This document shows positions 16,775 through 36,853 of a stretch of DNA of 37,371 nucleotides, in pieces. The notes under the pieces were generated by a model. The model had not been told where the DNA came from and ran no database searches. It worked only from the letters and a program-made list of their open reading frames with translations. Origin of the DNA: a virus; IMG/VR virus record IMGVR_UViG_3300036857_000068, positions 1-37,371 of that record, one strand, 5' to 3'. Position 1 is the stretch's first letter; the number at the start of each line of letters is the position of its first letter. The translations under genes were made by a program, and so were the position numbers.

Positions 16775-17001
16775 CGACGCCGCCCGATTCGAGCGCGACG
16801 TTCCGCGCGGCGCTCGAGCTCTTCGAGGCCGCGCTGCTCGAGGCGCGCGTCGAGCGGGAGCTCGCCGCGGCGCGGGTCGCCAAGCTCAAGGCGGCCGCCG
16901 AGCTCGAGCGCGCGGGCCGCGTCGACGAGGCGCGCGCGATTCTCGACGAGGTCAAGGCCGAGCAGGGGCGCGCGTTCGGCGATGCCGTGGCGCGGCGCTA
17001 G
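16771..17001 (+). CDS. Coiled-coil protein before large terminase
   Basis: The 76-aa product starts at GTG 16771 (GTGA). It is nearly all helix, rich in Ala, Glu and Arg (AALELFEAALLEARVEREL), as in a coiled coil. Its 3' end overlaps the large terminase start by 20 bases. It may pair with a terminase subunit; no family was recognised. Confidence 0.6.
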   Translation: MTTPPDSSATFRAALELFEAALLEARVERELAAARVAKLKAAAELERAGRVDEARAILDEVKAEQGRAFGDAVARR

Positions 17002-18541
17002 CTACCCCGGTGAGTTCCCGACGCTCGGCTACGCGGTCGCCGAGCTCGTGCAAGAGCGGTGCGTCATCCCGGACGGCGACCACGGCGGCGAGCCGTACCT
17101 GTTGACGAACGAGATGATCCGGTTCCTGCTCTGGCACTACCGGATCGACCCTGCAACCGGCCGGTTCGCGTTCAACCGCGGGTCGCAACTCGTCCGGCCG
17201 CAGAAGTGGGGCAAGGCGCCATTCGCGGCCGCCATGATTTGCGCCGAGGTTGACCCGGACGGTCCGGTCGTCCCGGACGGATGGGACGCGAAAGGCGAGC
17301 CCGTCGGCCGCCCGTGGGCGACACCGTGGGTGCAGGTCACGGCCGGATCGGAGGACCAGACCGACAACGTGTGGCGCGCGCTCGTGCCGATGATCGAGCT
17401 CGGCCCGCTCGCCGCCGTGCTCACGGACACCGGCGAGACGCGGATCAACCTGCCCGGAGGGGGCCGCATCGAGCCCGTCACGAGCTCCGCGCAGTCGAGG
17501 CTCGGACAGCGGATCACGTTCGTCGTGCAGGACCAGACCGAGTCATGGACGAAGCGGAACGGCGGCCGCGCGCTCGCCGACACGCAACGCCGGAACGTCG
17601 CCGGGATCGGCGGCCGCTGGCTCGAGACGACGAACGCGTGGGACCCCACCGACGAGAGCGTGGCGCAGCAGACGAGCGAGAGCGGCGAGCCCGGCGTGTA
17701 CCGCGACGACGTCGACCCCGGCGCCGGCTCGATCCGCAACAAGCGCGAACGCCGGCGCATGCTCCGCAAGGTCTACGGCGACTCGTGGTGGGTCGACCTC
17801 GACCGCGTCGAGACGGAGGTCGTCGCGCTGCTCGAGCGCGACCCGGCGCAGGCCGAACGCTACTTCCTCAACCGCAAGTCGGCGGCCGCCGACGCCGCGT
17901 TCGACGGCGACCGGTGGGAGGAGCTCGTCGCCGAGCACGAGGTGCCCGAGGGGTCGCTCATCGTGGTCGGCGTCGACGGCGCCCGGTTCGACGACGCGCT
18001 CGCCATCGTCGGGACGGAGGTCGAGACGGGCTATCAGTGGCCGATCGGGATATGGGAGCGGCCGAGCTCGGCGCCGCACGATTACGAGCACCCGCTCGAC
18101 GAGGCCGACGAGGCGCTCGAGGACGCGTTCGAGCGGTTCGACGTGTGGCGTGTGTACGCCGACCCTCAGTGGATCGAGGGGCTCGTCGACTCGTGGCGCG
18201 GCCGGTGGGGCGAGCAGCGTGTGCACGCGTGGCACACGAGCCGCACGCGGGCGACCGCGTGGGCGGTTCGCAGTTTCATCGCGGCGCAGGTCGGCGGCGA
18301 CACGACGCACGCCGCGTCGGAGCTCCTCACCCGTCACGTCAAGAACGCGCGCAAGCGGCACGTCGGCGTGTTCGACGAGGATCACCGGCCGCTCTACGTG
18401 ATCGGGAAGGACCGGCCCGGCTCGCCGCGGAAGATCGACGCGGCGATGGCCGCGGTCCTCTCGTGGGAGGCGCGGGGCGACGCGATCGCCGCCGGCGCCA
18501 ACCGTCGTCGGCGCGAGCCGACTCCGCTCATCGCGTTCTAG
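16982..18541 (+). CDS. terL: Terminase large subunit
   Basis: The 519-aa product starts at ATG 16982. A variant Walker A (RPQKWGKAP, residues 72-80) and the arrangement of the following strands mark the packaging ATPase. The C-terminal nuclease has VVGVDGARFDDALAIV (D332), YADPQWIE and a final KIDAAMAAVL segment, as in RNase H-fold terminases. The enzyme pumps DNA into the prohead and cuts it. The start overlaps the previous gene by 20 bases; no better start is visible downstream. Confidence 0.93.
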   Translation: MPWRGASYPGEFPTLGYAVAELVQERCVIPDGDHGGEPYLLTNEMIRFLLWHYRIDPATGRFAFNRGSQLVRPQKWGKAPFAAAMICAEVDPDGPVVPDGWDAKGEPVGRPWATPWVQVTAGSEDQTDNVWRALVPMIELGPLAAVLTDTGETRINLPGGGRIEPVTSSAQSRLGQRITFVVQDQTESWTKRNGGRALADTQRRNVAGIGGRWLETTNAWDPTDESVAQQTSESGEPGVYRDDVDPGAGSIRNKRERRRMLRKVYGDSWWVDLDRVETEVVALLERDPAQAERYFLNRKSAAADAAFDGDRWEELVAEHEVPEGSLIVVGVDGARFDDALAIVGTEVETGYQWPIGIWERPSSAPHDYEHPLDEADEALEDAFERFDVWRVYADPQWIEGLVDSWRGRWGEQRVHAWHTSRTRATAWAVRSFIAAQVGGDTTHAASELLTRHVKNARKRHVGVFDEDHRPLYVIGKDRPGSPRKIDAAMAAVLSWEARGDAIAAGANRRRREPTPLIAF

Positions 18542-18635: not shown

Positions 18636-18672
18636 AGTCAGAATGAACGCTACGGAGAAAGGAAAGAGTGAA

Positions 18673-19965
18673 ATGAACGGATTCGAGCTCTCCCCCATCG
18701 TCGAGTCGCCGGCCTCCGGGCCGGGCGCGCTCGCCGGCTTCGAGACGACCTGCTCGTGCGGGCTCGTCTTGAAGAGCTCGCTTCGGTCGCTCATCGAGGC
18801 CGACGCCGCCGAGCATGCCGACTGGCACGCTCGGCAGGCGGCCCGCGCCGAGCGGATCAAGAGCGACATAGTGACGATGGGACCGGAGGCCGCGCTTCGC
18901 AAGGCCGCGGCCGCCGTCGAGCCCGAGCTCGGCGTCGGCGACGTCGTCGAGCAGGTCGGCTACGACGTGCAGTTCACGGTCGTCGGCAAGTGGCGCGGCT
19001 ACCTGCGGCTCGTCGGGCCGGCCGGGACCGAGCACAAGGCGCCGCGCTCCGAGCTCACGCTCGTCGAGCGCGCGCCGCGGCCGTCCGTCGACGAGCGCGG
19101 CACGGTGCTGCTCGTCACGACCGCTCACCCGTCCATGAAGCAGCACACGCTCGACGGCGACCTGCACCCGAACCTCGGCCGGCTCATCACCCCGCGGCAC
19201 ACGAGCTCGATCGAAAAGACGGCCGGCGAGGGTATCCCGTGGGCCGCCGACAACGACTGTTTTCAGGGGCTCGACGCCGACGCCTACACGCGGATGATCG
19301 ACCGCATCGCAGGCCTCCCCGGCTGCATGTTCGTCACGGTGCCCGACGTCGTCGCCGACGTCGAGGCGACGTTCGAGCAGTTCGACCGGTGGATCGTCGA
19401 GCTCGAGGCGCGCGGCCTCCCGGCGGCGCTCGTCGCGCAGGACGGGCTCGAGCTCGAGCTCGACCGTGTCCAGTGGGATCGCATCGCCGCCGTGTTCATC
19501 GGCGGGTCGACCGAGTGGAAGGAATCGGCGGCCGCCGTCGAGGTCGCCCGCGAGGCGCGCCGGCGCGGCAAGCTCGTTCACTGGGGCCGCGTGAACACGC
19601 GCCGTCGGTTCGACCTCATCGTTGCGAGCGGCGTCGCCGACTCGTTCGACGGGTCCAAGTGGGCCCGGTTCCGCACTACCTACCTCAACACGGGGCTCTC
19701 GTGGGCACACGAGACGTCCGGAAGGGAGCAAGCTGCCATGCCTGTCTATCGTTTCGAGCTCGACGCCGAGGCGTCCGATGAGACTGACGCGACGATCGTC
19801 GCCGAGGTGCTCGTCGGCGCGATCCGCGACGAGCGCAACTATCCGGCCGAGCCGGTCGCGTGCCGCTACCGGCTCGTCGCCGACTCGTGGGACACGCCCG
19901 GCCCGTGGGCGACCGGCCCGTGGGCCGAGCTCGACACGCACGTCGAGGGAGGTGAGCAGGCGTGA
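18673..19965 (+). CDS. dpdA: DpdA-like 7-deazaguanine DNA transglycosylase
   Basis: The 430-aa product starts at ATG 18673, chosen for its ribosome site over ATG 18604 and 18643. The core (about 135-350) looks like the tRNA-guanine transglycosylase paralogue DpdA of phages: IPWAADNDCFQGL (D193), FVTVPDVVADVEATFEQFDR, VAQDGLELE, FIGGSTEWKE and GKLVHWGRVN, then ADSFDGSKW (D326, likely nucleophile). DpdA exchanges guanine in DNA for a 7-deazaguanine base, which blocks many restriction enzymes. An N-terminal C27/C29/H48/H52 cluster and an SH3-like stretch are extra. The last 75 residues follow an internal ATG (19738) with its own ribosome site and could be a separate protein. Confidence 0.78.
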   Translation: MNGFELSPIVESPASGPGALAGFETTCSCGLVLKSSLRSLIEADAAEHADWHARQAARAERIKSDIVTMGPEAALRKAAAAVEPELGVGDVVEQVGYDVQFTVVGKWRGYLRLVGPAGTEHKAPRSELTLVERAPRPSVDERGTVLLVTTAHPSMKQHTLDGDLHPNLGRLITPRHTSSIEKTAGEGIPWAADNDCFQGLDADAYTRMIDRIAGLPGCMFVTVPDVVADVEATFEQFDRWIVELEARGLPAALVAQDGLELELDRVQWDRIAAVFIGGSTEWKESAAAVEVAREARRRGKLVHWGRVNTRRRFDLIVASGVADSFDGSKWARFRTTYLNTGLSWAHETSGREQAAMPVYRFELDAEASDETDATIVAEVLVGAIRDERNYPAEPVACRYRLVADSWDTPGPWATGPWAELDTHVEGGEQA

Positions 19966-20213
19966 CGCCGCGCGCGAACATTCCGGCGCTCGAGCAGCGA
20001 CTCGCCGAGCTACGGCAGGCCGAGCTCGACCGCGTCACGCGGGCGGCCGACGCGCTCGAGGCCGCGCAGGCCGAGCTCGACGCCGCCGTCGGCTCGGCGA
20101 GCGACGCCGGCCTGTCGATCCGCGCGATTGCGAACGCGGCCCGCATGTCGTTCGAGTGGACGCGTCGGCGGCTGCTCACGCGGGACGCCGAGGCGTCGGG
20201 GGTGACGTCGTGA
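19962..20213 (+). CDS. Coiled-coil plus HTH-like protein
   Basis: The 83-aa product starts at GTG 19962 (GTGA). A long helix (LEQRLAELRQAELDRVTRAA) is followed by a short HTH-like segment (GLSIRAIANAARMSFEWTRR). It could be a small regulator or a partner of DpdA. No family was recognised. Confidence 0.58.
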   Translation: MTPRANIPALEQRLAELRQAELDRVTRAADALEAAQAELDAAVGSASDAGLSIRAIANAARMSFEWTRRRLLTRDAEASGVTS

Positions 20214-20748: not shown

Positions 20749-22173
20749 ATGAGCGCGCTCGACCTGCAGGCGACCAACGCGGCCGCGGCCGAGGACGTCC
20801 CGACGCTCGAGCCGCTCCGCGACGTGCTGCTCGCCAAGCTCAGAGTGCAGCGCGAGCTCGCCGAGACGTTCTACGACTGGTACCGGTGCCGACAGCGGCC
20901 GCCCGACATGCCCGCGGCCGCCGACTACAAGCCGGCATTCGAGCGTATGCGGAACATGGCTCGAGGCGCGTGGGCGCGGCTCGTCGTCGACACGATCGCC
21001 GAGCGGCTCGCCGTGCAAGGCGTGCAGACCACGGGCGGCGAGGCGGCCGACACGCGAGCGTGGTCACGGCTGCAGGCGAGCCGCGTCGACTCGGATCAAC
21101 GCGACGTGCACACCGAGGCGCTCATCACCGGCGTCAGCTACGTGAGCGTGAGCGGGTCGGGCGACGCCGTGCGGATCACTCCCGAGACGTGCCTCGAGGT
21201 CGCGCACCTCGCCGTGCCCGGCGATCGGCGCGTCACCGACGCAGCGATCAAGGTGCTCCCGCTCGGCCGCGGCCGCTGGCTCGCCGAGCTCTACACGAAC
21301 CTCGTCGTCGCCTCGTGGGAGGCGACCTACCGGGACCCGACCCGGACGCCGCTCATCGACGGAGCTCGCGCGCCGTGGGACGACACGCCGCTCGTCGTGC
21401 CGAACGAGCTCGAGGTCGTCCCGATCGTCCCGTTCGAGAACCGGCCGACGACCGCGTCGCCCGGCCTGTCCGAGCTCGACGAGCTCATCCCGATCCTCGA
21501 GCGGATTCAGGAGCTCGAGCTCGCCAAGCTCATCGCCGTCTACTCCGTCACGTTCCCGCAGAAGTGGGCGACCGACCTCAAAATCGTCCGGGACCCGGAG
21601 ACGAACAAGCCGATCAACCCGTTCGAGTCGGGGCCGATGCGACTATGGGTGAGCGAGAACCCCGACACGAAGTTCGGCGCGTTCCCGGCCGGCGAAATCG
21701 GGCAGTACCTCCGCGCGATCGACGACGAGGTCGCCGAGCTCGCCGCCATCTCCCGCGTGCCGTCCTACTACTTCGTGCAGTCGGACCTCGCTAACCCGCC
21801 GAGCGCGGAGTCGCTCGTCACGAGCGAGACGGGGCTCGTCACGAAGTGTCTCGACCGCATGCGGTCCTACGGCGAGTCGTGGGAGCAGGTCGTCCGGATC
21901 GCGGCTCTCGCCGCCGGCGATGCGGAGGTCGGCGGCGACCTATCCCTCGAGGTGCTGTGGCACACGCCCGAGCGGCGCAACCCGGCCGTGGTCGCCGACG
22001 CCGCGACGAAGATGCAGGCGGTCGGCGTGCCGACGGAGGCCGTGTGGGCGTTCCTCGGCTACTCGCCGCAGGCGATCCAGCGCATGCGGGTCACGGCGCG
22101 AGCCGAGCAGCTTGCAGCCGCGGCCGCCGCGGCCGCCGCGGCGCCGCCGGCGGTGCCCGGTGCCACCGCGTAG
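20749..22173 (+). CDS. Portal protein (SPP1 gp6-like)
   Basis: The 474-aa product starts at ATG 20749. Length and features fit the SPP1 gp6 family: an N-terminal helix, a central VRITPETCLEVAHL segment, a clip-like region (VPIVPFENRPTT) and a long helical part (LDELIPILERIQELELAKLI, then AISRVPSYYFVQSD). The portal ring forms the DNA entry vertex and docks terminase. The C-terminal tail is poly-Ala. It is followed in order by a MuF-like protein and a scaffold, the usual head-gene order. Confidence 0.9.
   Translation: MSALDLQATNAAAAEDVPTLEPLRDVLLAKLRVQRELAETFYDWYRCRQRPPDMPAAADYKPAFERMRNMARGAWARLVVDTIAERLAVQGVQTTGGEAADTRAWSRLQASRVDSDQRDVHTEALITGVSYVSVSGSGDAVRITPETCLEVAHLAVPGDRRVTDAAIKVLPLGRGRWLAELYTNLVVASWEATYRDPTRTPLIDGARAPWDDTPLVVPNELEVVPIVPFENRPTTASPGLSELDELIPILERIQELELAKLIAVYSVTFPQKWATDLKIVRDPETNKPINPFESGPMRLWVSENPDTKFGAFPAGEIGQYLRAIDDEVAELAAISRVPSYYFVQSDLANPPSAESLVTSETGLVTKCLDRMRSYGESWEQVVRIAALAAGDAEVGGDLSLEVLWHTPERRNPAVVADAATKMQAVGVPTEAVWAFLGYSPQAIQRMRVTARAEQLAAAAAAAAAAPPAVPGATA

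Positions 22174-35900: not shown

Positions 35901-36853
<953 letters not shown>

What the first reader, a model, noticed from the sequence alone, without database searches (positions are those of the whole stretch)
18673..19965. DpdA gene without precursor genes: likely 7-deazaguanine DNA
The core motifs match phage DpdA transglycosylases. No QueC/D/E or FolE homologue is seen in the window, so the modified base would depend on host preQ0. The protein has extra N-terminal Cys/His and SH3-like parts and a C-terminal extension with its own possible start. It lies between terminase and portal.
Basis: partly seen in the sequence, partly recalled or inferred. Interest (0 to 1): 0.75.

Follow-up and report, generated by a model that had tools for sequence, protein, structure and literature searches.

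The report
Compact phage DpdA-like base-swapping enzyme
This bacterial virus carries a small enzyme that probably swaps ordinary guanine in its DNA for a preQ0-type base; its relatives often sit beside a gene that imports or makes that base, but this virus has no such gene and would depend on its host.

Summary
D193 and D326 are invariant in 78 relatives. No QueC, QueD, QueE, FolE, TGT, YhhQ or multi-pass membrane protein was found in the record. The protein is not the DpdA of phages 9g or CAjan. It belongs to a compact (~205 aa) DpdA-like family (phrog_15826, 'unknown function', no Pfam) that co-occurs with true DpdA in three named phages and one metagenomic contig. It keeps, in order, the 9g DpdA landmarks including H196, and its model is a TIM barrel that aligns best with TGTs. 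New here: the family sits beside a YhhQ-type preQ0 transporter gene in 45 of 114 loci (100-locus subset: 37, all same strand, within 872 nt) and near Que/FolE genes in 11, with one overlap. That ties the family to 7-deazaguanine chemistry. The window's clade has neither supply, and sister phages lack the gene, so it is cargo. Known dpdA-only phages show 0 to 0.13% modified G, so heavy modification is not shown.

The parts
18673..19965 (+). Compact DpdA-like gene with N- and C-terminal extensions (430 aa from the best start)
   Evidence: (phrog_15826, 1.4e-42)
18660..18668 (+). Ribosome-binding-like AGGAAAGAG before the start at 18673
   Evidence: sequence
18751..18828 (+). C27-x-C29...H48-x3-H52 motif, possible zinc-binding helix
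   Evidence: sequence; helix in model, pLDDT about 75-82 near residues 41-80; no relative found
18934..19077 (+). SH3-like stretch of the N-terminal extension
   Evidence: two strands at low pLDDT; no homologue in the phage collection
19093..19737 (+). TIM-barrel TGT/DpdA-like catalytic core
   Evidence: AF2 pLDDT 94.9, pTM 0.92; most of the top 50 VIA rows are TGT, Z 14.7-15.1
19249..19251 (+). D193, predicted counterpart of 9g DpdA D72 / TGT D102
   Evidence: invariant; aligned with DSGAF of DpdA
19648..19650 (+). D326, predicted nucleophile, counterpart of 9g DpdA D215 / TGT D280
   Evidence: invariant; aligned with the TGT FDC motif
19738..19965 (+). C-terminal module with its own in-frame ATG and ribosome site (19720-19728)
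   Evidence: same arrangement in L002
19962..20213 (+). Small HTH-like gene overlapping the stop; a similar stretch is fused to the enzyme in L002
   Evidence: phrog_686 7.6e-4
16982..18541 (+). Terminase large subunit, left border of the cargo slot
   Evidence: 77-82% identical in sister phages without the enzyme
20749..22173 (+). Portal protein, right border of the cargo slot

Best explanation
The gene is a cargo gene of a ~37 kb siphophage-like virus with an integrase. It encodes a compact DpdA-like DNA transglycosylase. By analogy with TGT and DpdA, D326 attacks C1' of a deoxyguanosine and releases guanine, D193 serves as acid/base, the D225/Q256/G278 pocket binds a preQ0-type 7-deazaguanine, and that base is joined back. 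The phage neither makes nor imports the base, so it relies on what the host makes or salvages. The N-terminal Cys/His and SH3-like parts may help bind DNA. The product would shield phage DNA from guanine-recognising nucleases to a degree set by the host's base supply. Shown: gene, conservation, fold, landmark residues, family-level link to precursor supply, absence of supply here. Inferred: catalysis, DNA as substrate, identity of the base, protection.
For: Invariant D193, N194, P224, D225, Q256, G278, K283, H303, G305, R306, D326 in 78 sequences. Profile match to DpdA: hhalign 84%, E 8e-6, aligning WAADNDCF with LDSGAF, PDVVGD with LDGIGD and FIGG with LGG. The 9g hallmark His is H196 in KVHGFG; the compact family has an invariant H in the same order (VHxGRVN). 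Core model is a TIM barrel whose matches are mostly TGT. Supply coupling: YhhQ/PF02592 in 45 of 114 loci, Que/FolE in 11, both in 1; in the 100-locus subset 37 loci, all same strand and within 872 nt across 1.24 Mb of flank, none in 19 control phage loci. In named phages 17 of 24 family records have YhhQ against 73 of 50,697 phage records overall. The label changes at least 8 times on well-supported branches, so the pairing is not one inherited neighbourhood. True DpdA plus Que genes share phages with the family.
Against: No member has been assayed as far as I found. The window's clade (L002, L003, L029) has no supply gene. Known dpdA-only phages carry none or traces of the base (PMC6884629, PMC8306585). 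Sequence comparison with TGT alone is weak (hhalign 1.4%), and TIM barrels such as pyruvate kinase tie with TGT in Z. The family lacks the TGT zinc cysteines. The host is unknown.
Confidence: 0.6

Rival explanations
1. Real enzyme, but idle or nearly idle in this phage: it came with a lost or absent supply gene and the host offers no usable base, so the DNA is essentially unmodified.
For: No supply gene in the record. 21 of 32 genomes with relatives lack full-length QueC. Orion, dpdA-only, is unmodified; 7-11 and MED16 only at trace level (PMC6884629, PMC8306585). In mycobacteriophage Arib1 the transporter is truncated and the enzyme gone.
Against: The core is under purifying selection against L002 (dN/dS about 0.21), and a whole clade without supply genes keeps the gene and all landmark residues.
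Confidence: 0.25
2. The enzyme modifies tRNA or another RNA (or works on free nucleosides) rather than phage DNA.
For: TGT fold. Public records call relatives 'queuine tRNA-ribosyltransferase' or 'DpdA-like tRNA-guanine transglycosylase'. YhhQ normally feeds queuosine in tRNA (PMC11130926).
Against: Profile similarity is to DpdA, not TGT. The DpdA-type His is present and the TGT zinc site absent. It co-occurs with DpdA and occurs in phages of Mycobacterium, reported to lack the queuosine genes (PMC6884629).
Confidence: 0.12
3. A TIM-barrel enzyme unrelated to base exchange, or a decaying cargo gene.
For: No Pfam match. Foldseek's own top hits are assorted TIM barrels. The gene is absent from sister phages.
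Against: Ordered landmark residues, transporter/Que linkage and purifying selection.
Confidence: 0.03

Closest known systems
DpdA of Enterobacteria phage 9g / Escherichia phage CAjan
   Same: Catalytic Asp pair, LDGIGD-like motif, GG motif and the hallmark His (9g H196) in the same order.
   Different: About 205-aa core against 317 aa; not found by BLAST or HMMER; both families occur in the same phages (phiG7, R29Z, Sonali).
dpdA-only phages (Orion, Salmonella 7-11, Pantoea MED16)
   Same: A DpdA-type gene and no precursor genes.
   Different: tblastn with the compact protein did not list them among its 24 phage records, so they appear to carry other DpdA groups; here the compact family with fused extensions.
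'DpdA-like tRNA-guanine transglycosylase' of Arthrobacter Aoka and Sonali, Rhodococcus ReqiPine5 and Fishburnevirus mycobacteriophages
   Same: Same family, 40-47% identical over the core; members scanned all match phrog_15826.
   Different: Those have a YhhQ gene (Aoka, ReqiPine5, Fishburnevirus) or Que genes (Sonali) close by; the window has none and adds N- and C-terminal parts.
Bacterial tRNA-guanine transglycosylase (TGT, PF01702)
   Same: Barrel fold (Z about 15 over 204 residues, rmsd 3.1); D326 falls on the TGT nucleophile.
   Different: No zinc-binding subdomain, no PF01702 match, His where TGT has Met (motif comparison).
DpdA2 (Vibrio phage nt-1)
   Same: Also a diverged DpdA subfamily not found with 9g DpdA as query (PMC6884629).
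   Different: DpdA2 is reported to lack the His at 196; the compact family has it. No direct comparison was made.

Membership tests
DpdA (9g type) | Detectable sequence homology | tested here: inconclusive
   No BLAST/HMMER link; profile-profile 79-84%, E 8e-6 to 1.7e-5 over about 90 columns
DpdA (9g type) | Two catalytic Asp and the His at 9g position 196 | tested here: met
   D193, H303, D326 invariant in 78 sequences; 9g D72, H196, D215. The His and C-terminal Asp correspondence is by motif order; hhalign covers only the first half
DpdA (9g type) | Inserts a 7-deazaguanine into DNA | not testable with these tools
   Needs an enzyme assay or LC-MS
DpdA (9g type) | preQ0 synthesis genes in the same genome (groups 1-2 of Hutinet 2019) | tested here: not met
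   group 3 of that paper lacks them too
Compact DpdA-like family (phrog_15826) | Profile match and landmark residues | tested here: met
   1.4e-42; all 78 members match it
Compact DpdA-like family (phrog_15826) | Adjacent YhhQ or Que genes (about half of loci) | tested here: not met
   None in the record; not a required feature
Bacterial TGT (PF01702) | Zinc site CxCxxC...H after the nucleophile | tested here: not met
   No invariant Cys in A2 against C306, C308, C311, H337 in host TGTs; no PF01702 match
Bacterial TGT (PF01702) | TIM-barrel fold of TGT | tested here: met
   VIA Z 14.7-15.1, 202-205 aligned, rmsd 3.0-3.2; tied with pyruvate kinase
DpdA2 | Lack of the 9g H196 | tested here: not met
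   The corresponding His is invariant in the compact family

The most novel reading that the evidence does not exclude
The compact family is a separate class of phage DNA transglycosylase, distinct in partners and perhaps in sequence target from DpdA, that typically works on a 7-deazaguanine base imported by a phage-borne YhhQ transporter. The window's clade has dropped even the transporter, lives on the host's pool, and has gained fused parts that may bind DNA.
Probability: 0.45. Interest if true: 0.7.

Novelty: new variant of a known kind. Interest (0 to 1): 0.5.

Why it matters
Whether phages with a DpdA-type gene but no precursor genes modify their DNA at all has been open since 2019, when no correlation with the YhhQ transporter was seen (PMC6884629). 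Here one compact family is tightly and repeatedly paired with that transporter, including in phages of Mycobacterium, reported to lack the pathway. That turns the open question into a simple feeding experiment, and it gives phrog_15826 (listed as unknown function) a concrete prediction.

Tried and rejected
Two-motif idea (a second enzyme explaining the GA and GGC contexts of CAjan DNA, cited in PMC8306585): dropped, because tblastn finds the compact gene in only two Escherichia phages (phiG7, SHIN8), not CAjan or 9g. Simple DpdA: rejected because both genes occur in one genome. Solved structures by sequence: no usable match. Pfam, NCBIfam, PADLOC: no match. Foldseek alone did not list TGT in its top rows; only the VIA re-alignment did. 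N- and C-terminal extensions alone: no phage match. Host: a TerL at 66% in one genome of the class of a Solirubrobacteraceae MAG, but its portal is only 32% identical and no enzyme gene is seen, so the host stays open. Host QueC against phage YhhQ: no clear inverse relation by eye. No sigma-70-like promoter of its own was found. The first tree had the window row in the wrong frame and was replaced.

Full report
WHAT IS THERE. The window is one IMG/VR virus record of 37,371 bases, GC 0.714, with a tyrosine-integrase-like gene near its left end (1147-2517, judged from its sequence), a head-and-tail gene run and no tRNA. The gene lies between TerL (16982-18541) and the portal gene (20749-22173). 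An in-frame ATG at 19738 has its own ribosome site in the window and at the matching place in L002, so the last 75 residues could also be made alone; this was not shown. The next gene (19962-20213, HTH-like) overlaps the stop; in L002 a similar stretch is fused to the enzyme.

FAMILY. The core (about 205 aa) matches only phrog_15826, 'unknown function', and no Pfam, NCBIfam or PADLOC family. The phage collection has 24 records, IMG/VR at least 583 stretches and one genome per species 33. In 78 aligned members the invariant residues include D193, N194, P224, D225, Q256, G278, K283, H303, G305, R306, D326.

IS IT DpdA? In Escherichia phage phiG7 and Vibrio phage R29Z a true DpdA of 306-316 aa sits beside folE and queD (and queE and queC in phiG7), while the compact gene is a separate gene next to DNA polymerase. 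Arthrobacter Sonali also has both, as does contig L034. The compact family is therefore not DpdA itself. Profile comparison still links the two (84%, E 8e-6), and the landmarks of 9g DpdA, D72, D114, GG162, H196 and D215, have counterparts in the same order: D193, D225, GG278, H303, D326. Hutinet et al. name the His at 196 as a DpdA feature missing from DpdA2 (PMC6884629). hhalign covers only the first half, so the His and final Asp are matched by motif and order; D326 also falls on the TGT nucleophile in a weak TGT alignment.

FOLD. AlphaFold2 gives the core alone pLDDT 94.9 and pTM 0.92. In the VIA re-alignment most of the top 50 rows are TGT (Z 14.7-15.1, 202-205 residues, rmsd 3.0-3.2), tied in Z with pyruvate kinases at higher rmsd. 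A TIM barrel is secure; the TGT kinship rests on motifs and context as much as on fold. The extensions are poorly modelled.

PRECURSOR SUPPLY. Profiles seeded from ReqiPine5/Aoka transporter genes and phiG7 Que genes were run on all loci. Of 114 non-redundant loci, 45 have a YhhQ-type gene (PF02592 confirmed in whole records), 11 have Que/FolE genes and only phiG7 has both. In a 100-locus subset 37 transporter genes all lie on the same strand, 31 within 300 nt and all within 872 nt, out of 1.24 Mb of flank; 19 control phage loci have none. In named phages 17 of 24 family records carry it against 73 of 50,697 overall, though these are few lineages. On the tree the transporter label changes at least 8 times on well-supported branches, so it is not one inherited neighbourhood. 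PF02592 is the QPTR/YhhQ family that imports preQ0 and preQ1 (PMC11130926). Hutinet et al. saw no correlation between YhhQ and any phage group (PMC6884629); no paper found in the library searched here reports the present pairing. This is the strongest evidence for 7-deazaguanine chemistry.

THE WINDOW'S CASE. The window, L002, L003 and L029 form a supported clade without supply genes. Whole records of the window, L003, L029, L004 and L005 lack QueC, QueD, FolE and YhhQ, and the window has no multi-pass membrane protein. Sister phages with 77-82% identical TerL and 75-78% identical portal lack the enzyme in the TerL-portal interval, which holds other small genes there, so this is a cargo slot. 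L002, a different phage type, carries the nearest relative also between TerL-like and portal-like genes but on the opposite strand. The sister records of 36.8-37.6 kb suggest the window is near complete; this is not proven.

HOST. Not known. Genomes with relatives are mostly actinomycetes and Paenibacillus; 11 of 32 have full-length QueC. In the class of a Solirubrobacteraceae MAG, where one genome has a TerL at 66%, 28 of 199 genomes have QueC and 147 have TGT, which would suggest salvage more than synthesis if the host lies there.

READING. The best reading is a compact DpdA-like DNA transglycosylase that uses host-supplied 7-deazaguanine. Catalysis, DNA as target, the exact base and protection are inferred. 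Tested dpdA-only phages range from none (Orion) to 0.02% (7-11) and 0.13% of G (MED16, without restriction protection) (PMC6884629, PMC8306585), so an idle enzyme is a serious rival. The individual gene is an ordinary new member; the supply pairing of its family and its coexistence with DpdA make it a new variant worth a feeding experiment.

Noticed in passing
L022:11932-12524 (Escherichia phage phiG7): The compact gene is split in two overlapping reading frames; SHIN8 also matches in two pieces. Frameshift, sequencing error or decay.
   Followed up: partly
L179:2965-3419 (Mycobacterium phage Arib1): The YhhQ-type gene is truncated and the compact enzyme gene is missing where the related GreaseLightnin has both.
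   Followed up: partly
L023:8610-9527, L121 and L128 just downstream of the core, L024:3571-4605, L168:6352-7395: A PAPS-reductase-like (N-type ATP pyrophosphatase) gene lies next to or near the compact enzyme in several phages; it might alter the base further.
   Followed up: partly
window:18542-20748: TerL-portal interval is a variable cargo slot: sister phages carry other small HTH and SH3-like genes there.
   Followed up: yes
window:13673-15442 and 36078-36479: Two proteins with long collagen-like GPx repeats.
   Followed up: no
window:15748-16221: Pfam calls it a terminase small subunit (1e-16), PHROGs a minor tail protein (2.7e-21); its place before TerL favours the former.
   Followed up: no
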